From the NCBI GenBank assembly GCA_030612835.1, contig JAUWND010000008.1, positions 1-34,025 of the forward strand: 34,025 bases of DNA. Direction: 5' to 3'. The notes under the pieces were generated by a model that searched no databases, was not told the origin of the DNA, and was given only the letters and a program-made list of their open reading frames with translations. Made by a program: the position numbers and the translations under genes. This DNA is from Candidatus Methanophagales archaeon. Lineage in GTDB: Archaea; Halobacteriota; Syntropharchaeia; Alkanophagales; Methanospirareceae. Positions 6,899 through 34,025 of the stretch are shown piece after piece (positions within the stretch are counted from its first letter, which is position 1; each line of letters opens with the position of its first letter).

Positions 6899-7075
6899 GT
6901 ATTTGTTTAGCTCCTTTTTATAACCACCCGATTACACAGATTTTCACGAGAAAAAAGAATAATATTGACATAGTTTTAGTACACCACTAACTACTTTATG
7001 CCATAAAAAATAATCCCAAGTTCTTGTGTTAATCTTGTGAAATCTCGTGGTTTTTTTATGTAGCTATACAAAAAC
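6899..7075 (+). mobile_element. MITE-like element copy A (177 bp)
   Basis: GTATTTGTTTAGCT... / ...AGCTATACAAAAAC ends; flanking ATGGTGGT (6891-6898) vs ATAGTGGT (7076-7083), 7/8 TSD. Confidence 0.85.
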
Positions 7076-8557: not shown

Positions 8558-9286
8558 ATGACAGAAGCAAGACGGACGAAAAAGGAATTTATCAAAGAAT
8601 GTCGGTTCTACATACTACTAGTCTTACTGGTTCTTGCCCTCTGCCTGAAACAAGCATCAATTCAGGATAAAATCACTATGCGATTTGGCTATTATGATTA
8701 CACCTCACTTATTAGCGCAATTAATCCTGATTTCGCGCTGATACTTCAAAAAGGGATTTACTCGTCACTTACATATTTAATGACATTTACTTATATCATA
8801 ATATATCCCTGTGTTTTGATTTTCACAATCTTGTTATTGATCCATTATAGGGAGACGGTTTTATTCAAACGAGCGACATTGATGTTCTCGCTCGATTATC
8901 TGATAGCATTTCCTTTTTTCATGCTCTTCAATGTTTCCACAACCGGAGCAACTTTACCGGGTATGGAACCACTCATATACGAACAATTTCCACGTATATG
9001 CGCGGCTATTACTACTATTGATCCATTAGACAACTGTTTTCCGAGTTTGCATGTGGCAATGGTATTTAGTGCATTTTTAATTATGTGTGGCACCAATTAC
9101 AGACGTTATAAGACTTTCACATACTTTGCAGTCCCAGCCACGGTCTTTGCCGTATTGTATCTTGGCATACACTGGCTAATAGATGTCTTTGCAGGTATAG
9201 CGTTAGCTCTTTTCACGTATTATCTAGCCAAAACATTTTGCAAGTCTTCGCAGATCAGCTCTTCAGGCGCTTCCGGAGCATTATGA
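8558..9286 (+). CDS. PAP2 / inositolphosphotransferase-like membrane phosphatase
   Basis: DNCFPSLHVAMVFSAFLIM ... LGIHWLIDVFAGIALAL; start at 8558 rather than 8324, because the 8324 start overlaps the upstream gene by ~200 nt. Confidence 0.82.
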   Translation: MTEARRTKKEFIKECRFYILLVLLVLALCLKQASIQDKITMRFGYYDYTSLISAINPDFALILQKGIYSSLTYLMTFTYIIIYPCVLIFTILLLIHYRETVLFKRATLMFSLDYLIAFPFFMLFNVSTTGATLPGMEPLIYEQFPRICAAITTIDPLDNCFPSLHVAMVFSAFLIMCGTNYRRYKTFTYFAVPATVFAVLYLGIHWLIDVFAGIALALFTYYLAKTFCKSSQISSSGASGAL

Positions 9287-9434
9287 ACCACGAGATTACA
9301 CAGATTTCCACGAGAGAACATTAATTCTATTCTGATTTCAGTACCCCCTTGACGAGCATAGTGGATAGTTAATTCCCTCCATATTAACACCCATTTCTTG
9401 TGTTAATCTTGTGGTTTTTATGTTGGTAAACATA
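9286..9434 (+). mobile_element. degenerate MITE-like copy B (left tip missing, right tip decayed)
   Basis: AACCACGAGATTACACAGATTTCCACGAGAG ... ATTTCTTGTGTTAATCTTGTGGTTTTTATGTTGGTAAACAT matches the internal arms of copies A/C-F. Confidence 0.7.
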
Positions 9435-16012: not shown

Positions 16013-16479
16013 CTTGACAATGTCAGATTAACCGCAGAGTTCACAGAGAGCGCAGAGGATATAGAGAGGAGGTATTTGTTTTGTATAGCTCAGTAAAAAT
16101 TCCAAGCACCAAGCATCAAATTACAAACAAATTCCAAGCACCAAATTCAAATTTATAAACTCATTTGGATTTTTTCAATATCAAACTAAAGATTTCCAGA
16201 TCATACCGTTTTGAATTTTGGTTTTTGGTCATTAGGATTTGTTTGAGATTTGGTGCTTGTAATTTGAGATTTTCGCTCTATACAAATACGAGAGGAGATA
16301 TGTCCTAATAATTTATCTCCTTCACAACCTGAACCAATTTTATTACCCAATGATTACATATGTTGGTAGAAAGTTACCAATACATAACGTTTGGAAATAA
16401 CAATCTGCACATACATGAAATTTTCTCTGCGAACTCAGCGTTCTCTGCGGTAAATGAAATTTAAGGTGACATTGTCAAG
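16013..16479. mobile_element. outer inverted-repeat element hosting a nested MITE
   Basis: 13-bp perfect IR CTTGACAATGTCA (16013-16025) / TGACATTGTCAAG (16467-16479), plus imperfect ACCGCAGAG...CGCAGAG / CTCTGCG...CTCTGCGGT arms. Confidence 0.65.
16072..16289. mobile_element. MITE-like element, second family (218 bp)
   Basis: GTATTTGTTTTGTATAGCT ... CTCTATACAAATAC ends; perfect 8-bp TSD GAGAGGAG at 16064-16071 and 16290-16297. Confidence 0.88.
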
Positions 16480-19403: not shown

Positions 19404-19564
19404 GTATTTGTATAGCTAATCTTAAAAACCACGAGATTCCACAAGATTAACACAAGAAATTAAGGCTAATAGGGATGGGATAGCCAATAGTTTATTAAAA
19501 CCCGATTACTATTATTGTTTTCTCGTGAAAATCTGTGTAATCTTGTGGTTTGCTAAACAAATAC
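19404..19564 (-). mobile_element. MITE-like element copy C (161 bp)
   Basis: GTATTTGTATAGCT ... GCTAAACAAATAC ends; flanks GAAAAAAG (19396-19403) / GAAAAAAA (19565-19572), 7/8 TSD; body is the reverse complement of copies E/F. Confidence 0.88.
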
Positions 19565-20358: not shown

Positions 20359-20530
20359 GTATTTGTATAGCTAACTAAAAAAACCACGAGATTTCACAAG
20401 ATTAACACAAGAACTTGGGATTATCAGGGTATAAAGTAGTTACTAGTGTACAGAAGCCATGTTAGTATTATTCTTTTTCTCGTGGAAATCTGTGCAATCT
20501 TGTGGTTATAAAAAGGAGCTAAACAAATAT
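20359..20530 (-). mobile_element. MITE-like element copy D (172 bp), no recognisable TSD
   Basis: GTATTTGTATAGCTAACT ... AGGAGCTAAACAAATAT ends; internal sequence resembles copy A in reverse complement. Confidence 0.82.
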
Positions 20531-21852: not shown

Positions 21853-22395
21853 TGAAGTCATTAATCGATTTTGCACTTAATGAGGAGTATGAGCGAGTAA
21901 AACAGCTTGGAGACAGGCTAATGGAGATCGAATCAGTAATTGACTGGGAAGCTTTTCGTCTAATTTAGAGTGGGAGAAATGTATGAGAACAGGAGCGAGC
22001 GAGGCGGCAGACCAAACATCGATGAGGTGTTAATGGTCAAGCTGTTAGTGCTTCAGCAGTGGCATGGCCTATCAGATCCAGAACTCGAAAAGCAGGTTAC
22101 TGATAGGATCTCGTTCAGGAAGTTTCTTGTATTTCCAGCAGTTATCCCTGATTTTACCACGGTCTGGTATTTCAGGGAGCGATTAGCGAAAACAGGTAAA
22201 GACCGAGCAATATGGGAGGAACTCCAGAGACAACTCGATTCCATGGGTCTAAAAGTAAAGTGTGGCGTAGTCCAAGATGCGACTTTTATTACTTCTGATC
22301 CTGGACATGCTAAGGCGGATACACCGCGAGGAGACGAAGCAAAGACGAGGAGAAGCAAGGATGGCACATGGGCAAAGAAAGGCAGTAAATCGTGA
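21853..22395 (+). pseudogene. IS5-family transposase 5' fragment (frameshifted)
   Basis: LKSLIDFALNEEYERVKQLGDRLMEIESVIDWEAFRLI* then, after a frame change, MYENRSERGGRPNIDEVLMVKLLVLQQWHGLSDPELEKQVTDRISFRKFL ... VVQDATFITSDPGHAKADTPRGDEAKTRRSKDGTWAKKGSKS. Confidence 0.85.
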
Positions 22396-23547
22396 TGGAC
22401 AGAATATCATATTCAAGAAACTTGCAGATATGAGCAATCAACTTGTTTATGACTTGAGTTCCATGTTCTCACGTTCTATGAGCATAAATCAGGCTGAGAA
22501 GGGATATAATAAGAATAAGATACAGGTACCCCAGATAAATCTCGCTCTACTGTGTAGCGCGGACACAGGCTTGCCTACAATGATTCGCTCTCTCCCTGGC
22601 AGTGTGAAGTGAATGACATAAAAACGCTCTATTACTCGATAAATGAACTCGATATTGAAGGGAAGGTCCTCATACTTGATAGGGGGTTCTTCTCTGACGG
22701 CACAATAAAGTTTTTAGGCGGTAAGAAGGGTAAGAAAATCTCCTACGTGCTCCCGGCAAAGAGGAATAGCCGTTATTATGATAATCGTATCCACTTCACC
22801 GAATACTTTTCCTACCACGGTCGTTTGATAAGGTGTGGAAAACGGAAATACAACGATTTTTACCTCTACCTCTTTGAGGACCAGGATCTTAAACTGGAAG
22901 AACAGAAGACGCTGTACAGGAAATTAGAGGAGCGCAAGATTGACAAGGAAAAATTTGGTATTTGTTTAGCTCCTTTTTATAACCACCCGATTACACAGAT
23001 TTTCACGAGAAAACGATAATAGTAATCAGGTTTTAATAAACTATTGGCTATCTCATCCATATTAACCTTAATTTCTTGTGTTAATCTTGTGGAATCTCGT
23101 GGTTTTTAAGATTAGCTATACAAATACAAAATTTGATGTTGACCAGAAGAGAGCAGGGAAGATCCTTATTGTTTCAGATATGGATGTAGAGAAGCAGGAA
23201 ATTTATCTGCTCCTCAAGAAGCGAGAAGTGGTTGAGAAGATGTTTGACACTTACAAAACGGTGCTTAATGCGGACAAGCTCTATCTGCAGAACGATGAAA
23301 GTGTCTTTGGGCACGTATTCATCGCATTTCTTTCTCTTTATATCCACTGTAAGTTGGAACAGCACTTAAAGAACGCGAAACTCAATCATAAGTTCACTCC
23401 GATTGATCTGCTATACAAATTTAGAACAGCAAGGTCTACCATCTTGAAATACGTGGGCGCGGCATTATCTCTGAGGTTCCAAAGAAGGTGATGGACCGGG
23501 ATGAAGCACTTGGATTGCTTATGTACCCTAAAACGATTCGAAGTTAA
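22396..23547 (+). pseudogene. IS4/IS1634-like DDE transposase 3' portion, broken by two frameshifts and a MITE insertion
   Basis: FKKLADMSNQLVYDLSSMFSRSMSINQAEKGYNKNKIQVPQINLALLCS...GLPTMIRSLPGSV / NDIKTLYYSINELDIEGKVLILDRGFFSDGTIKFL...KLEERKIDKEKF [MITE] DVDQKRAGKILIVSDMDVEKQEIYLLLKKREVVEKMFDTYKTVLNADKLYLQND / IISEVPKKVMDRDEALGLLMYPKTIRS*. Confidence 0.85.
22958..23127 (+). mobile_element. MITE-like element copy E (170 bp) inserted in the transposase gene
   Basis: GTATTTGTTTAGCT ... AGCTATACAAATAC ends; perfect 8-bp TSD AAAATTTG at 22950-22957 and 23128-23135. Confidence 0.95.
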
Positions 23548-23619
23548 GGTTTAAAATGACTGCATCTAGAAGGGCCTTTAGACATATACCCTTATCTCGT
23601 ATGTTTCAATAAAATCAAA

Positions 23620-23785
23620 GTATTTGTTTAGCAAACCACAAGATTACACAGATTTTCACGAGAAAACAATAATAGTACTCATGTTTTAATAAACTATTGG
23701 CTATCCCATCCATACGAGGTTAACCTTAATTTCTTGTGTTAATCTTGTGGAATCTCGTGGTTTTTAAGATTAGCTATACAAATAC
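23620..23785 (+). mobile_element. MITE-like element copy F (166 bp)
   Basis: GTATTTGTTTAGC ... AGCTATACAAATAC ends; perfect 8-bp TSD AAATCAAA at 23612-23619 and 23786-23793. Confidence 0.95.
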
Positions 23786-25275: not shown

Positions 25276-28200
25276 ATGAAAACCGAACTAAAAGCGAAAT
25301 CGGTATCGCTGCTACTCGTAACGATAATGCTCTGCTCGATCTTCGCTGGCGCGGTGACGGCGGATGTGACTAAAAGTGCTGCGAATACCTCCCTCGCCTT
25401 TGGCAATCCAAGATCATGCATAGGCTGCGCAGGCTACGAACCCTGGTATTACTACGCCGCAGGCGGTATTGTAAATACCGCAAATGGCAATTTATACCTC
25501 GCTGAAGCGGACATCTCAATAAAAGCACGTGGCTTCGACATCGAACTCGTCAGGGCATATAACAGCCATAACAGTGGAAAGCATGGTCCCTTCGGTTTCG
25601 GCTGGACTTTCAATTACAATATTTATCTCGTGAAAAATGATGATGGCTCTGTAACTTTCTTCGATGAAGATGGCTCTGCACATACCTTCACACCCGCGGG
25701 AGGAAACAATTATACCGCACCACCTGGAATACACTCGAAATTAGTTAAAAATGCGGATGATTCTTTTACACTCTGCTTTACTGACGTCTCAAAGTACAAC
25801 TTCGGCTCAAATGGTAAGATAAATAATATCACAGACAAAAATGACAATCACTTAAATTTCACATATAATATACTTGGGAGACTCACACGCATATCCGATG
25901 ATTCCGGGCTGTACCTCAATCTTAATTACAACCTGCGTGGTAGAATTAGCAGCGTTGTTGACCCACTGGGAAAGGAGATACGGTATGAATATGATGTCAG
26001 CGACTTGACAAAAGTGACAGATGCGATGGGTCACTCAACGCGTTATGAATATTATGACAATCACAAACTCAAGAGTAAAGTAGATCGTGTTGACAGCATG
26101 CTTATATTTTCCTACTATGACGATGGCAAGGTCAAAGATGTCAAGGTTTCTAAGTATGGAGAGAAGGATGTTATGCCCTTTACTCTTTACAAACTCGAAT
26201 ATGCTTCAAATATCGCCGATGTAACAGACGCATTAGGTCATGAAACAACAATAGAGCACAATTCAAATGGCAATCCAGTAAAAATCACTGACCCCTTAGG
26301 CGGGGTTATAACTACGAACTGGGACGGTGATATGAATATAGTAAGTATTACAGATGCTAATGGACACATCACAAGTTTTAATTATGATGCTTTTGGAAAT
26401 TTAATCAAAGAAACAGATGCTCTCGGCAATTCTGCTCTTTATGCATACGATAATATTGATACAACTGGAAAGTATATTTCTCTGCTTGTAAATACTACAA
26501 ATGCACGAGGATTTACAACGAGTTTTGAGTATGATGCAAAAGGGAATTTAATAAGACTCACTGATGCAACTGGAAATCATTCCTCTATGGGTTATGATAC
26601 TTATGGAAATGAAATAAGTTCAGCGGATTTCAGAGGCTATATCACGCTTTTTGCTTATGATGCCCGTGGATATTTACTTAATTCCACAGATGCCACTGGA
26701 AATGCTACAAGTTACAGTTATGATTCAGGTGGAAGACTGTTAAGTGAAACCGATGCAAATGGATATTCAACAAAATACGAATACGATGCCAATGATAATC
26801 TCATTAAAGAACTAGATGATACTGGAAATGAAACAAAATATGAATACAATGCAGAAGGGAATTTAATAAATACAATTGATGCAAATGGTCATTCTACCGC
26901 CGTTAGTAAGAATATTATTGGTAAAATAGATGGAACCACAGATGCCTCAGGGAATGAAACGTCCTTTGAATATGATAAAAATGGAAATTTGATTGAGATT
27001 ACAGATGCAAATGGTAGAAAAACAAAAACTACTTACGATGCCTTGGGCAGAGTTATTTCTGTAACCGACGCACCTGGAAACACGATAAGGTATACCTATG
27101 ATGCTGCAGGTAGGGTAACAAGCATAACAGACAAAAATGGTCATACTACCCATTACACTTATGATGCAGTCAATAGACTAATACAAGTGAAAGATCCGCT
27201 GGGTCATACAGTTAGTTATTCTTACGATGAAAATAGTAATTTGCTATCTTTGGCAGACGAGAACGGGCACACTACAAGCTATGAATACGATGTTCTGGAT
27301 AGAGAGGTTAAGGTTATTGACGCCTTAAGCAATGAAGATTTGTTTTCGTATGATGCAAATGGAAATCTTTTAAGTTTTACGGATGCATACGGGTATATCG
27401 TTTGTTATAAATACGACCCTTTGAATCGTTTGATAGAGGTTATTGACCCAACTGGAAAAAAAACAATTCAATCATATGATGCAGTAGGAAACCGAGTAAG
27501 CCTAACAGACAGGAATGGACATGTAACTTCTTTTAGATACGATACATTAAATAGATTAATAGAAATAACAGATGCACTTGGAAATGCTGAAAGCTATGAG
27601 TACGATGCGGTAGGAAATATAATAACTTTAAAAGATGCAAAAGGATTTACTGAAAATTACTTTTATGATGAATTGAATAGAGTGACAAAAGTTGTTGATG
27701 CCACTGGTAAGAGCACCTTGTTTAGCTATGATGCAGTTGGAAATTTGGTGAGAACAACGGATGCAAATGGAAATAGTGAATCCTTTACCTATGACTCTTT
27801 GGATCGGCTAATAAACGTTACTAATGCACTCAGTCGCCAGACAAAGTACGAATATGATGCAACGGAAAACGTAGTAAGTATAACAGATGCCAACAATCAT
27901 GTAACTGGATTTCAGTATGATGCTTTAGATAGATTGATTAAAACTAAAGCAAACTATCCATCCCTTAGTGAAATATCCTACGGTTATGACAATATAGGTA
28001 ATATGATTAGCATGACAGACGAAAATGGGCATAGAACAAGATACGAATACAACGACTTAGGTAAATTAACAAAAGTTACTTCCCCCCTCGGCTATACTAC
28101 CCAATTTAGTTACGATGCAATTGGAAACCTTATAAGCAGAACTGATGCCAATGGGGACACCTCTACTTATAGCTATAATGTATTAGGTCGCTTGATATCC

Positions 28201-31200
28201 TCTACTTATCCAGATGGAAGCAATATAACATATAAATATGATGCGGAAGGTAATTTTATTCACGTATCAAGTAATGGAATTGTTACAAATAATTCTTACA
28301 ACGAGCTTAACCAACTTGAATCTACCACAGTGAATTATAGTTCATTCTCCAAAACCGTAGGGTATACCTATGATGCCAACGGTAACCGTGCAACTATGAT
28401 AGACGCTGACGCCGGTATTACAAGTTATGTCTACGATGGAGTTGATAGACTTGTAAGCATTACAGACCCGTCCGGGGAAACGATAGCTTACCAATATGAC
28501 GATACGGGCAGAGTATTAAAAATCAACTATCCAAATGGTGTTTCTTCGAGTTATTCCTATGATGCTGCTGATAGACTAAGTAAGCTTACAAATAAAAAAT
28601 CAAAAGGGGAAATGATTTCGAGTTATTCTTATACTTATGATAATCTTGGCAACCGGGTGAGCATGGCTGAAGCTAATGGGAATATTACTAAGCATAAGTA
28701 TGATGAACGAAATAGACTTATTAATGTAACTTATCCTGATGGAAATATTGCTCGGTATACCTATGATAAAGCAGGCAATCGTGTATCTGAAGCAAATGCT
28801 ACTTCTACAATCACCTATACCTATGATGCAGATAATAGATTGTTAAATACAAACGGAATAAGCTATTCTTATGATAATAATGGAAACCGGATAAGTAAAA
28901 GCGATGGAACGAAATATGAATACGACTACGAGAACAGATTGACTAAGGTCACACTTCCAGATGCAAGCCAGGTTACTTATCAATATACTCCATTTGGAAA
29001 TCGAATAAGTAAAACAGATATCAATGGAACAACGCATTACCTATACGAATTTGAAGATATTCTAATGGAGTTCGATGTAAATGGAGTGCAGAAGTCAAGA
29101 TATACGCATGGAATAGGAATAGATGACCCAATTAGTATGGATAGGAATGGAGCTAAATCATATTACCATATTGATGGCTTGGGTAGTGTAACCTCTTTGA
29201 CTGATGTAAAAGAGAACATAGTGGCAAGTTACAGGTACGATGCATTTGGAAAGATAAAAGAAAAAACTGGAAGTGTGATTAACCCTTATACATTTACCGG
29301 CAGAGAATACGATAGCGATATTGGATTGTATTACTATCGTGCGAGGTATTATGATGCCAAAGTGGGTAGATTCCTGAGTAAAGATTTAATTGTCCCTAAT
29401 TCATACACTTATGTAGATAATAATCCTGTTAATTTAGTAGACCCCTTTGGTTTTGGTCCCTTGAAAGGTCTAAGTTGGGGGGAAGCATGGGACGCTTTCT
29501 CAGAAAGCTGGTCTAAGCAGGGTGAATCTTTCGTAGAAACATGGAGAGGTGTTGCTAAAGGTGATATGCAGCATATAGCTCGCCAATATAAAAACAGCGG
29601 GTTAGGACAAACTCATACACACATGCATTCCTGCCCTTGGGCATATTACGGAACACGAAGTGCACTCACTGTATCTGCTGCCACGGGTAGTATTGCTATT
29701 CTAGTTATCGCATCTGAGTCAGGCGCAGTAAGATATGCATGGCTGGGTGGGAAATGGGTAGTAGTGACGGGAGGTAAATTAGCATGGCGTAGCGGGAAGT
29801 GGCTGCTAGTGAAGGGAGGTAAATTAGTATGGCGTAGCGGGAAGTGGCTGGTAGTGAAGGGAGGTAAATTCGCATGGCGTGTGGGGAAAAAGAGAATCAT
29901 AGATTGCATAGTAGGAGCTTCAGTACGTGCTGGGACGTATTTGGTGGGGCAAGAGTTGTTTGGGAATAAGAAATCAAACTGTGAACACGGTTGTGCTGTG
30001 CTTGCTAATGCACTTACTGGGTGTATTGCAACAGCTATCCTGGGGGGTATGGTTGGTGGGACTATAAAACATCTTTTTCTTAAAGGTGTTAATATTTTCC
30101 CTGGGGCGATAGGGCCTATTTCTCAGATAATGTATCATAGAACTGTATGGGGTGGTAAGGTTCTTACGTCATTACTTGCGGCTGGAACACTTGAGGATTA
30201 TCTTAAAGAAAATTGTATGTCAGCCTGTTACCCTGGAGAAGGCGAATCAACTAACGGTATTAAAGGATTTAAAAAAGATAAAAACAAAAAACCACAAAGA
30301 AGGGGTGGACATCCTGATGACAACTACGATGTTTCCGTTCTCAGTTATTCTTCTCCAACCGCCACTACATCTAATTACAAACCAGAAGAAGTTGCAATTC
30401 TCGCAAATGGATTCTACGATGAGTTCTCGAATCTTTTAACGGAACTCGGTGAATCCGCTACCTTTGTAGATGTTTATACGCCATTAGAAAATTTGAATGA
30501 TTACCCAATTTTAATAATACCAAGCGGTGGCTTCTCCGGCATATCCTCTTTATCTTCTTTCAAATCAAAACTCGAAAACTATGTCAATGACGGAGGCACG
30601 CTAATTGTTTACTCTCAGAACAACGGCTACGAATTCGGTGCTGTCCCCGGCGATCTGAGCGGTTACGGTTGGACCGAAGATCAAGCATGTCATTATCGTT
30701 CGGTTGCTATAAATACATATCACCCACTCCTGTCCGGGCAGAATTCCGTAACTCTTGACGTCGTCGTTGATGGCTATTTCACCTCTTATCCGGAGAATGC
30801 AACTATTTTACTCACGAGAACGAAGAATGGCATGCCTGCGATGCTGATGTATGAATACGGGAATGGAACTGGAACGATAATTGCAACTACTATTTACACT
30901 GATTGGGCTTACGGGCATCATCAGGCGACAGGAGATGGAAAACGTCTGATTAGAGACATGATTTCATGGGCAAAGGAGCGAAAAGAACTGTCTGAATATA
31001 GCGCTGACGACCTCGTGATTATTCCTATAAACGTAACGAGTTATATTGATTTAACCTCAGATAAAGTCAAATTTGAGGTGATTGCAGATAACGAGGTCGT
31101 GGACACCGTGGAAGTTACGACTTCTATTCCGCCTTACGAAAAAAAAACAGTTAATTTCGTTTATAGAGCACCTGCGAATCTCGGTATTCTCTATATTGAC

Positions 31201-34025
31201 TACCTGCTGGTGAACGACAGTTATGGAGAAGTGCAGCGAGTGCATGATGTAGAAAGATTCGTGGTGAGCAAATACGCTGAGAATCCAGGTGGGTTCGTTT
31301 ATCGGGGCAAGGAACTTCAAATATGGGCTACTTCTTCTGATGATTACGTTGCAAAAGGTTCTGAAGTTGTATTTACTAGCTATCTGAAGAATAACGGTGA
31401 TGATGAGTTTAAAGGAAACATCGGTATCTACGGACACGAGGCGGGTGGAGCGTGGTGGGCTTATTACGATAACATCTCGAATATTACCATAGCACCGCAT
31501 TCCGAAGATAGCTTTACGTATGCTCACGAGATGGAACACTCTACGGCGGTCTATTTCGGATTGTTTGACAAGCCTGTGAATCATAAGGCCCTTTCTATAC
31601 GTAGCTTCAACCAAAACGCTATTGCAAAGTGTGAGCGAGGAGTATGGACTTTTTACCCATCCGTTGATATTGAAATAGAAACAGACCAGAAAGAATATGC
31701 AAAAGGTGAAGATGTCTTTGTCTCGCTCAACCTCACGAACAAGCAAAAAGTCCGCCACAATGTTACCGTTGACGTCAGAACGCTTGACCCAGACAACAAG
31801 AAGATTTACGAAGACAGTTTTGACGCGAACCTCAGCGCTTACGAAACCAAAAACAAAACGCTTTCTTTCTCGCTGCCCGCAGATTCCCGCTACGGCACTT
31901 ATATCGTAACGGCAGAAGCATACGAAAGCGGAGATAAAATAGGCTCTAACTCTACTTACTTTGAGCTTCCAAAGATTTACCTCTTAAGGCGGAACTTTGA
32001 TAAGCCAGACAAGGTTTATTGCATCAGACAAAACATGAGCCTTACTCTTAACATCACAAACACCGGCTCGTCTGTCTGGACTTCGTGGATAAACACAACC
32101 ATTCCCTCTCTCGCCTTCTCTGATTCCAAATTCCTCTCTTTGAACCCAAACGAAAACAGAGAAATAGAATACAAGAACATCGGCATTCCCACAGACTTCG
32201 CAGCCGGGAAACACGATGTCCTCGTTAACCTCTCTTACGACAGCAGCACAAAAAAGGACAATTTTTTCATTCCTTGCTCTGACCTGAGGATAGAAGCAGG
32301 CAAGAAATACAAAGCAGGCGAAAACATAAGTTTCAATATCTCCAACGTTGGCGGCGTAGATACCGATTTCAACTGCTCCTTCAAATTCGTTGACTGGAAA
32401 GGCAAGGAGATGTACGAAGATGTGGTAGAAGATACCCTTCTTTCTTTGAAGAACAAAACCATATCCTTTGATATTCACAACCAGTCAGTGAACGGCTCGT
32501 ATTATCTCATCGTGTCGTGCAAAGATAAAGAGACGGGAAGAGAGACGGAATTAGCTGCGCTATGCGAAGTAAGCGGTTTGAAATCGGATTTGACCTCAGA
32601 CACCGAGAGAAAAATATATTTCAAAAACGAGAATGTGTCCATCCTTACAAATATAACGAACAGGGATAGCGAGATTGAGAACGGCACGCTGAACCTCAAA
32701 ATCGTTCGTGTTTCCATGCCTACCTCAGCCGAACGCGCACTTGCTATCGCAACCGCAAAACTGTCGGGGTATAAGTATAAGCTCGAAGAACACGAAATTG
32801 TCATGCATAACAGCTCTCACAACCGTTCGCATAACAGTTCAACCCTGCAATCGCCTTCTCCTCCACCTACTAATTTCTTATCCGGACTGAGTCCATATAA
32901 CATTATTGCTACTGCTCGCGCTGCATCGCCACCTGCAAACTTCACTCCCACACCCACTCCCGAACACGAACCCGAACGCGAACCTGAAAATGAAACAGGG
33001 GAATTACCAATTGAAGAACTATCACCTACACCATCCATTAATGTTACTCCTACGCCTGAGCATGAACCTTTGGCACTTCCGGCAGACGAGCTTAACGAAA
33101 GTTATGATAATGAATCGCGAATAGAAGAGTTTGTGCATTCGCCTTCACCACTACCCGCAAACTTAACTCCCACCCCTGAACCGGGAAATGAAATAGGGGA
33201 ATTCCCAATTGAAGAACCATCACCCTCTCTTCCACCCGTTAACCTAACTTCCATCCCCGAACCAGAACCCGAACCCGAAGAGGAACTTGCTGAAATTTAT
33301 AAGCTGAGTGCAGCGAAATTAAGCGATATTATAATAGGAAACGAAACGGTGTGGAAAGACGAAGTAAAAATCTTAAGTGGCAATTTAATTATCAATTCCT
33401 CCGGGAACCTCACCTTGATTAATACCCAATTAATCATGGATTGCACTTCTGACGGGCAGTACCACATTGAAGTTCAAAACGGTGGCGAGATGCACATCTT
33501 CGATTCCGAAATCACTGCAAAGAACACGAATTATGAATATTACTTCCAGGTGAAATCAGGTGCGAAGTTTGAGATGCACGATTCTGAACTACACGAGTGC
33601 GGTTATACATGGGGAACAAATGGCGACCATGCCGGTTTGTGGATCAATACGAATAACACAATAATTGAGAGTAATTCAATAACAAGTAATTATTGCGGAA
33701 TCGTGTTATATCAATCCAACAACAACACCTTAACAGACAATACCGCTAACTCAAACAACAACCGCGGCATTTATCTGTCTTCTTCGAGTAACAACACACT
33801 TACAAACAACACCGCCAACTCGAACAAATACGACCACGGCATTTACCTATCTTCTTCGAGTAACAACACTTTAACGAACAATACCGCTAACTGGAACGTC
33901 AACCACGGCATTTATCTGTCTTCATCTAATAACAACACTTTAACGAGAAACACCGCTAACGGGAACAGATACGACCATGGCATTTACCTATCTTCTTCGA
34001 GCAACAACACGCTCACGAGAAACAC
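25276..34025 (+). CDS. giant secreted YD/RHS-repeat protein with C-terminal CARDB-like and NosD-like beta-helix regions (3' end beyond window)
   Basis: Frame 1 open from ATG 25276 to the window end, spot-checked at many lines; MKTELKAKSVSLLLVTIMLCSIFAGAVTA signal peptide; NTANGNLYLAEADISIKARGFDIELVRAYNSHN...GPFGFGWTFNYN; dozens of YDAxGN/L...D..G repeats; RHS core YTFTGREYDSDIGLYYYRARYYDAKVGRFLSKDLIVPNSYTYVDNNPVNLVDPFGFGP. Confidence 0.95.
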   Translation, partial: MKTELKAKSVSLLLVTIMLCSIFAGAVTADVTKSAANTSLAFGNPRSCIGCAGYEPWYYYAAGGIVNTANGNLYLAEADISIKARGFDIELVRAYNSHNSGKHGPFGFGWTFNYNIYLVKNDDGSVTFFDEDGSAHTFTPAGGNNYTAPPGIHSKLVKNADDSFTLCFTDVSKYNFGSNGKINNITDKNDNHLNFTYNILGRLTRISDDSGLYLNLNYNLRGRISSVVDPLGKEIRYEYDVSDLTKVTDAMGHSTRYEYYDNHKLKSKVDRVDSMLIFSYYDDGKVKDVKVSKYGEKDVMPFTLYKLEYASNIADVTDALGHETTIEHNSNGNPVKITDPLGGVITTNWDGDMNIVSITDANGHITSFNYDAFGNLIKETDALGNSALYAYDNIDTTGKYISLLVNTTNARGFTTSFEYDAKGNLIRLTDATGNHSSMGYDTYGNEISSADFRGYITLFAYDARGYLLNSTDATGNATSYSYDSGGRLLSETDANGYSTKYEYDANDNLIKELDDTGNETKYEYNAEGNLINTIDANGHSTAVSKNIIGKIDGTTDASGNETSFEYDKNGNLIEITDANGRKTKTTYDALGRVISVTDAPGNTIRYTYDAAGRVTSITDKNGHTTHYTYDAVNRLIQVKDPLGHTVSYSYDENSNLLSLADENGHTTSYEYDVLDREVKVIDALSNEDLFSYDANGNLLSFTDAYGYIVCYKYDPLNRLIEVIDPTGKKTIQSYDAVGNRVSLTDRNGHVTSFRYDTLNRLIEITDALGNAESYEYDAVGNIITLKDAKGFTENYFYDELNRVTKVVDATGKSTLFSYDAVGNLVRTTDANGNSESFTYDSLDRLINVTNALSRQTKYEYDATENVVSITDANNHVTGFQYDALDRLIKTKANYPSLSEISYGYDNIGNMISMTDENGHRTRYEYNDLGKLTKVTSPLGYTTQFSYDAIGNLISRTDANGDTSTYSYNVLGRLISSTYPDGSNITYKYDAEGNFIHVSSNGIVTNNSYNELNQLESTTVNYSSFSKTVGYTYDANGNRATMIDADAGITSYVYDGVDRLVSITDPSGETIAYQYDDTGRVLKINYPNGVSSSYSYDAADRLSKLTNKKSKGEMISSYSYTYDNLGNRVSMAEANGNITKHKYDERNRLINVTYPDGNIARYTYDKAGNRVSEANATSTITYTYDADNRLLNTNGISYSYDNNGNRISKSDGTKYEYDYENRLTKVTLPDASQVTYQYTPFGNRISKTDINGTTHYLYEFEDILMEFDVNGVQKSRYTHGIGIDDPISMDRNGAKSYYHIDGLGSVTSLTDVKENIVASYRYDAFGKIKEKTGSVINPYTFTGREYDSDIGLYYYRARYYDAKVGRFLSKDLIVPNSYTYVDNNPVNLVDPFGFGPLKGLSWGEAWDAFSESWSKQGESFVETWRGVAKGDMQHIARQYKNSGLGQTHTHMHSCPWAYYGTRSALTVSAATGSIAILVIASESGAVRYAWLGGKWVVVTGGKLAWRSGKWLLVKGGKLVWRSGKWLVVKGGKFAWRVGKKRIIDCIVGASVRAGTYLVGQELFGNKKSNCEHGCAVLANALTGCIATAILGGMVGGTIKHLFLKGVNIFPGAIGPISQIMYHRTVWGGKVLTSLLAAGTLEDYLKENCMSACYPGEGESTNGIKGFKKDKNKKPQRRGGHPDDNYDVSVLSYSSPTATTSNYKPEEVAILANGFYDEFSNLLTELGESATFVDVYTPLENLNDYPILIIPSGGFSGISSLSSFKSKLENYVNDGGTLIVYSQNNGYEFGAVPGDLSGYGWTEDQACHYRSVAINTYHPLLSGQNSVTLDVVVDGYFTSYPENATILLTRTKNGMPAMLMYEYGNGTGTIIATTIYTDWAYGHHQATGDGKRLIRDMISWAKERKELSEYSADDLVIIPINVTSYIDLTSDKVKFEVIADNEVVDTVEVTTSIPPYEKKTVNFVYRAPANLGILYIDYLLVNDSYGEVQRVHDVERFVVSKYAENPGGFVYRGKELQIWATSSDDYVAKGSEVVFTSYLKNNGDDEFKGNIGIYGHEAGGAWWAYYDNISNITIAPHSEDSFTYAHEMEHSTAVYFGLFDKPVNHKALSIRSFNQNAIAKCERGVWTFYPSVDIEIETDQKEYAKGEDVFVSLNLTNKQKVRHNVTVDVRTLDPDNKKIYEDSFDANLSAYETKNKTLSFSLPADSRYGTYIVTAEAYESGDKIGSNSTYFELPKIYLLRRNFDKPDKVYCIRQNMSLTLNITNTGSSVWTSWINTTIPSLAFSDSKFLSLNPNENREIEYKNIGIPTDFAAGKHDVLVNLSYDSSTKKDNFFIPCSDLRIEAGKKYKAGENISFNISNVGGVDTDFNCSFKFVDWKGKEMYEDVVEDTLLSLKNKTISFDIHNQSVNGSYYLIVSCKDKETGRETELAALCEVSGLKSDLTSDTERKIYFKNENVSILTNITNRDSEIENGTLNLKIVRVSMPTSAERALAIATAKLSGYKYKLEEHEIVMHNSSHNRSHNSSTLQSPSPPPTNFLSGLSPYNIIATARAASPPANFTPTPTPEHEPEREPENETGELPIEELSPTPSINVTPTPEHEPLALPADELNESYDNESRIEEFVHSPSPLPANLTPTPEPGNEIGEFPIEEPSPSLPPVNLTSIPEPEPEPEEELAEIYKLSAAKLSDIIIGNETVWKDEVKILSGNLIINSSGNLTLINTQLIMDCTSDGQYHIEVQNGGEMHIFDSEITAKNTNYEYYFQVKSGAKFEMHDSELHECGYTWGTNGDHAGLWINTNNTIIESNSITSNYCGIVLYQSNNNTLTDNTANSNNNRGIYLSSSSNNTLTNNTANSNKYDHGIYLSSSSNNTLTNNTANWNVNHGIYLSSSNNNTLTRNTANGNRYDHGIYLSSSSNNTLTRN
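29290..29460 (+). other. RHS repeat-associated core domain
   Basis: TFTGREYDSDIGLYYYRARYYDAKVGRFLSKD...YTYVDNNPVNLVDPFGFGP. Confidence 0.93.
29737..29892 (+). repeat. 45-bp (15-aa) tandem repeat, ~3.4 copies, inside the giant ORF
   Basis: AWLGGKWVVVTGGKL / AWRSGKWLLVKGGKL / VWRSGKWLVVKGGKF / AWRVGKK. Confidence 0.95.
33721..34025 (+). repeat. NosD-like beta-helix repeats, alternating 69/72-bp units, continuing past the window
   Basis: NNTLTDNTANSNNNRGIYLSSSS / NNTLTNNTANSNKYDHGIYLSSSS / NNTLTNNTANWNVNHGIYLSSSN / NNTLTRNTANGNRYDHGIYLSSSS. Confidence 0.95.

What the first reader, a model, noticed from the sequence alone, without database searches (positions are those of the whole stretch)
22950..23135. 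MITE-like element inserted into a transposase ORF with a perfect 8-bp TSD; virtual excision restores the frame
Copy E (22958-23127) is flanked on both sides by AAAATTTG. Removing the element plus one TSD copy (178 bp) joins ...KLEERKIDKEKF to DVDQKRAGKIL in frame. This gives nucleotide-level evidence for the element boundaries, its TSD length and its mobility. Track ORFs 22609-23019 and 23078-23491 end and begin inside the element and are artefacts.
Basis: seen in the sequence. Interest (0 to 1): 0.82.

Follow-up and report, generated by a model that had tools for sequence, protein, structure and literature searches.

The report
IS66-type MITE inside a dead transposase
A 170-bp non-coding jumping element, one of roughly eighty relatives in this methane-cycling (ANME-1-type) archaeal genome, landed in an already decaying transposase gene and left an 8-base duplication; its ends match those of an IS66-family insertion sequence that probably moves it, so it is a new example of a known kind of mobile DNA.

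Summary
A 170-bp element (22958-23127) is flanked by AAAATTTG on both sides. More than 25 homologous transposase genes, some full-length, have the uninterrupted site at protein and DNA level, with one copy of the 8-mer. The element is multicopy: at least 42 matches in its own genome, and about 80 inward-facing ends per strand against 2-3 by chance. Of 53 complete copies, 28 carry an 8-bp duplication with at most one mismatch (shuffled flanks: about 1); no other length stands out. So it is a MITE.

I add its likely mover. The 14-bp end GTATTTGTWTAGCT also bounds 1.53-1.54-kb single-gene IS66-family insertion sequences (ISBst12-like) in sister genomes. One is intact in both ends and gene, with a perfect 8-bp duplication. 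None intact was found in the window's own assembly.

One correction: the host gene was not merely interrupted. It is a 5'-truncated IS1634-type remnant fused to an IS5-type fragment and frameshifted elsewhere, so excision restores the frame only locally.

One extra finding: the same ~125-bp core also occurs between unrelated ends (TAGTCATTCC, flanked by TA) in other ANME-1 genera, so the core has exchanged transposon ends. Overall: a new member of a known kind.

The parts
22958..23127 (+). MITE copy E (170 bp, non-coding)
   Evidence: 98% identical to two other copies (C115, C122), family of at least 42 matches in the genome.
22958..22971 (+). left terminal inverted repeat GTATTTGTTTAGCT
   Evidence: identical to one end of the IS66 elements (L219, L220).
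23114..23127 (-). right terminal inverted repeat (reads GTATTTGTATAGCT on the - strand)
   Evidence: identical to the other end of the same IS66 elements.
22950..22957 (+). target-site duplication, left copy AAAATTTG
   Evidence: a single copy in homologous empty sites.
23128..23135 (+). target-site duplication, right copy AAAATTTG
22981..23104 (.). imperfect palindromic core AACCAC...GTGGTT (approximate limits), shared with other MITEs including some with different ends
   Evidence: The whole element folds far better than shuffles as ssDNA (z -6.3) and RNA (z -7.3); core alignment.
22385..22957 (+). 5' part of the IS1634-type (DDE_Tnp_1) transposase relic, truncated at the 5' side and frameshifted
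   Evidence: DNA homology limits; Pfam PF01609 and NCBIfam IS1634 (23.7 bits, below its cut-off of 100).
23128..23557 (+). 3' part of the same transposase relic
21970..22395 (+). IS5-type transposase fragment (DUF772) abutting the relic
23620..23785 (+). second MITE copy (F), TSD AAATCAAA on both sides
19404..19564 (-). MITE copy, TSD GAAAAAAG/GAAAAAAA (7 of 8)
20359..20530 (-). MITE copy without matching flanks
6899..7075 (+). MITE copy, 8-bp flanks match at 7 of 8
16072..16289 (+). MITE with the same ends but an unrelated core (AAATTCCAAGCACC repeats), TSD GAGAGGAG on both sides
9286..9407 (+). core-like copy without recognisable ends (approximate limits)

Best explanation
Copy E is a miniature inverted-repeat transposable element that inserted by transposition into an IS1634-type transposase gene or relic. 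It duplicated 8 bp of target (AAAATTTG) and truncated both reading frames. It encodes nothing. An IS66-family transposase supplied in trans most likely recognises its 14-bp ends (GTATTTGTTTAGCT / GTATTTGTATAGCT), of the single-ORF ISBst12-like type found with the same ends in sister ANME-1 genomes; that DDE enzyme joins the ends to a staggered target cut, preferring AT-rich sites (roughly ATA-N8-TAT), and host repair produces the 8-bp repeat. Shown: the insert, its boundaries, the TSD, the family and the shared ends. Inferred: which enzyme acts, and that it acted in trans.
For: Boundaries and TSD. Empty site. Copy number. Shared ends: IS66 elements of 1540 bp (L192/L220, G003), 1540 bp (L218, G002), 1543 bp (L219, G022) and 1532 bp (L247, G029) bounded by the same 14-mer with at most one change. 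In L219 and L220 the left/right asymmetry T versus A at position 9 is the same as in the MITE. L247 has a perfect 8-bp TSD GTAATTTA, and the degenerate 1809-bp L241 has GCATGGTC with a MITE nested inside it. The ORF of the G002 and G003 elements is IS66: PF03050 112.8-117.7 bits, PF13005, NF033517 262-265 bits against a cut-off of 180. IS66 elements make 8-bp duplications, and the ISBst12 group has a single ORF: ISDge4 in PMC12898284 (449-aa transposase, 8-bp DR, TIR GTAACTGCTCAGCA) and ISPpa5a/ISPpa7 in PMC3281130. Target preference.
Against: The window's own assembly (86% complete) shows only small IS66 fragments, so a present-day partner is not demonstrated there; multicopy IS elements often drop out of such assemblies. 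MITE and IS66 share little beyond about 14-23 bp of each end, so descent by simple internal deletion is not shown. Three IS66 copies of full length (L218, L219, L235) lack a matching TSD, and in another (L220) one flank is a run of N.
Confidence: 0.88

Rival explanations
1. The interrupted IS1634-type transposase, or its family, is the MITE's own mobiliser and the insertion is a self-insertion.
For: The MITE lies inside it, and this family is common in the same genomes.
Against: No DDE_Tnp_1 locus examined is bounded by the MITE ends; the few 2-3-mismatch hits beside them lie inside the coding sequence (LLYKFR) or are chance. IS66 elements do carry the ends with 8-bp TSDs.
Confidence: 0.03
2. 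The palindromic ~125-bp core is an independent dispersed element (or a selected hairpin) that different transposons pick up; the IS66 ends are only one of its carriers.
For: The core is homologous through its loop between copies with IS66-type ends and copies with TAGTCATTCC ends flanked by TA. On a tree of 87 cores the end type changes only 3 times (shuffled mean 16.7), so the two groups share descent. Different cores also sit between IS66-type ends (16072-16289 here; L196-L199, L207 elsewhere).
Against: No lone core with convincing TSDs at its own borders was found. Recombination or nested insertion between MITEs explains the exchange without an independent core.
Confidence: 0.2
3. The 178-bp block is not an insertion but an ancestral part of this transposase subfamily, or an assembly error.
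For: None found; the assembly is fragmented and many contigs break in this repeat.
Against: More than 25 homologues lack it, including the closest (91% DNA identity, L174), and each has one copy of the 8-mer region. Full copies with 8-bp TSDs lie well inside contigs at many other sites.
Confidence: 0.01

Closest known systems
IS66 family, ISBst12 group (single-ORF tnpC elements such as ISBst12, ISDge4)
   Same: 8-bp target duplication; terminal repeat beginning GTA and with AGC at positions 11-13; partner elements carry one ~457-aa IS66 transposase and no room for tnpA/tnpB.
   Different: The window element has no gene. The ends read GTATTTGTWTAGCT rather than the GTAACTGCTCAGCA of ISDge4.
Archaeal MITEs reported in PMC3852290 (BMC Genomics 2013)
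   Same: Short, multicopy, non-coding, sharing only the terminal <20 nt with the autonomous partner, sometimes with direct repeats.
   Different: That paper's text does not mention IS66; here the host is an ANME-1-type archaeon and the core is shared with a second end type.
IS1634-family transposase (DDE_Tnp_1)
   Same: The interrupted host sequence belongs near it (NCBIfam NF033559 weak match; PF01609).
   Different: It is the victim, not the mobiliser, and here it is a truncated relic.

Membership tests
MITE (prokaryotic) | short (<500 bp), no coding capacity | tested here: met
   170 bp; the only ORFs of at least 90 aa touching it are the flanking relic frames.
MITE (prokaryotic) | terminal inverted repeats | tested here: met
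   GTATTTGTTTAGCT / AGCTATACAAATAC, 13 of 14 complementary, within a longer imperfect palindrome.
MITE (prokaryotic) | multicopy and dispersed | tested here: met
   At least 42 matches in G000; about 80 ends per strand against 2-3 in the control.
MITE (prokaryotic) | target-site duplications | tested here: met
   28 of 53 copies at 8 bp with <=1 mismatch, shuffled about 1.
MITE (prokaryotic) | autonomous partner with the same ends | tested here: met
   IS66 elements in sister genomes; none intact in the own assembly.
MITE (prokaryotic) | actual mobilisation in trans | not testable with these tools
   Needs a transposition assay.
IS66 family (partner elements) | IS66 TnpC with zinc-finger and DDE domain | tested here: met
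   PF03050, PF13005, NF033517 above cut-off for the G002 and G003 elements.
IS66 family (partner elements) | 8-bp target duplication | tested here: met
   L247 GTAATTTA exact and L241 GCATGGTC exact; no match in L218, L219, L235, and one flank unreadable in L220.
IS66 family (partner elements) | TIR of the family (GTAA start recalled from memory of ISfinder) | tested here: inconclusive
   Starts GTAT; GTA..TG...AGC is shared with one end of ISDge4.
IS66 / ISBst12 group (partner elements) | single tnpC ORF, no tnpA/tnpB | tested here: met
   1532-1543-bp elements with one ~457-aa ORF.

The most novel reading that the evidence does not exclude
A conserved ~125-bp palindromic core, found across ANME-1 genera, has changed its transposon ends: in some genera it is bounded by IS66-type ends with 8-bp duplications, in others by unrelated TAGTCATTCC ends with a TA-type target. 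Two different transposase families would thus have spread the same non-coding cargo.
Probability: 0.55. Interest if true: 0.5.

Novelty: new member of a known kind. Interest (0 to 1): 0.36.

Why it matters
The insertion gives an exact, nucleotide-level definition of an abundant repeat family in uncultured ANME-1-type archaea and ties it to a transposase family. That explains a class of repeats at which many of these contigs break. The end exchange around a common core, if confirmed, would show how non-coding cargo can outlive any one transposase by switching mobilisers.

Tried and rejected
A first paired-end pattern search failed because the gap was set too short; one search corrected it. The exact empty-site 25-mer was absent from genome contigs, as expected for diverged homologues; protein and longer DNA queries found the empty site instead. 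DDE_Tnp_1 elements were tested as mobilisers and rejected. Paired ends 400-3500 bp apart within the own-genome loci gave no autonomous element. Rfam and tRNA scans found nothing. Literature searches found no ANME-1 MITE paper and no IS66-derived archaeal MITE in the held library, which does not prove absence.

Full report
What is there. Window 22958-23127 is a 170-bp sequence with ends GTATTTGTTTAGCT and AGCTATACAAATAC, bounded on both sides by AAAATTTG. It is an imperfect palindrome through most of its length and folds far better than shuffled sequence as DNA or RNA. Two non-overlapping ORFs, 22609-23019 and 23078-23491, run into it from either side. Their parts outside the element match the same family, DDE_Tnp_1 PF01609, at successive profile positions 60-128 and 134-198.

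Is it an insertion? Joining the flanks at one AAAATTTG gives KIDKEKF-DVDQKRAGKIL. The joined protein matches homologues over residues 1-212 without a break at that point. The joined DNA aligns without gaps to about 28 loci, some of them duplicate records, with one copy of the 8-mer region. In L171, L169 and L136 the same 8 bases of the homologue align to both flanks, an independent measure of the 8-bp duplication. The named homologues are mostly Methanophagales/ANME-1, Argoarchaeum and ANME-2c genomes. The sister genome G002 is identical over 3 kb to Methanophagales archaeon CONS3730B06UFb1 (QENH01), so the host belongs to that genus of ANME-1-type archaea.

Is it a family with a fixed TSD? 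The assembly holding the window (2.5 Mb, 213 contigs, 86% complete) has 42 listed matches. The 14-bp end at <=1 mismatch occurs 80 and 82 times on the two strands, against 3 and 2 for the reversed control. Of 53 distinct complete copies with flanks, 19 have identical 8-bp flanks and 28 have at most one mismatch; shuffling the right flanks gives 0.5 and 1.0, and no other length from 4 to 12 stands out. Across 33 insertions with TSDs, including two long elements, the target prefers an AT-rich site of the form ATA-N8-TAT. Related copies occur in 33 of 59 relatives, mostly in the same family, and the core is nearly confined to that family across 295 genomes of the phylum.

What moves it? I scanned relatives for pairs of the end facing each other at insertion-sequence distance. 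G003:C53, G009:C223 and further genomes hold 1.53-1.54-kb elements bounded by this end and containing one ~457-aa ORF (intact in G002, G003, G022 and G029, broken in G009). The G002 and G003 ORFs tested are IS66 transposases by Pfam and above NCBIfam's curated cut-off. In L219 and L220 the two ends show the same T/A difference at position 9 as the MITE. The G029 copy (L247) has intact ends, an intact gene and a perfect 8-bp TSD GTAATTTA. A degenerate IS66 copy in G008 (L241) has TSD GCATGGTC and carries a MITE nested inside it with a 7/8 TSD. Published IS66 elements give 8-bp duplications, and the ISBst12 group has a single ORF. Only small IS66 pieces are present in the window's own assembly, so the partner may be lost or simply unassembled. 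Similarity between MITE and IS66 is limited to the ends, as is usual for archaeal MITEs (PMC3852290). The interrupted IS1634-type family does not carry these ends.

State of the interrupted gene. It is not a clean gene apart from the MITE. Homology to intact copies begins at 22385, directly after an IS5-type fragment (21970-22395). Frames change at about 22605-22612, and the frame departs from the homologues near 23425 while DNA similarity goes on to about 23557. Whether these changes came before or after the MITE cannot be told from this sequence. Excision therefore restores the local frame, which is what any TSD-flanked insertion into coding DNA would show, not a functional gene.

An unexpected point. 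In several other ANME-1 genera the same core, aligned through its loop, lies between different ends: TAGTCATTCCRGTAA...CGGAATGACTA, often with TA on both sides. On a tree of 87 cores the end type changes only three times against 16.7 when labels are shuffled, so the exchange is rare and the cores share descent. Conversely, the IS66-type ends enclose other cores (16072-16289 in this window; L196-L199, L207). The second end type looks like an IS630/Tc1-type target, but that is inference; its transposase was not searched for.

Verdict. The element is an IS66-type MITE, a new member of a known kind. The modular exchange of ends is the part most worth following.

Noticed in passing
window 16072-16289: A second MITE type with the same IS66-like ends and perfect 8-bp TSD (GAGAGGAG) but an unrelated core of AAATTCCAAGCACC-type repeats.
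   Followed up: partly
L272-L290, L305-L316 (other ANME-1 genera): The same ~125-bp core bounded by TAGTCATTCC ends with TA flanks instead of IS66-type ends.
   Followed up: partly
L008 and L011 (G000 contigs C49 and C137): Two MITE copies share one flank but not the other, as if recombined or misjoined at the repeat; many contigs of the assembly end in this element.
   Followed up: no
L205 (G002:C111) 1076-1084: An IS66 end and a MITE end lie back to back, only 7 bp apart.
   Followed up: no
window 25792-28900: Long stretch of 63-bp-periodic repeats of the type TATGATGC..GGAAAT, consistent with a YD/RHS-repeat protein; no long closed ORF covers it in the listing (it may run off the window).
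   Followed up: no
window 33721-34002 and 29739-29888: Tandem repeats with 141-bp and 45-bp units.
   Followed up: no
L301 (G083, another family of the phylum): One full-length core with IS66-type ends, 89% identical, outside the ANME-1 family; possibly horizontal transfer or a misbinned contig.
   Followed up: no
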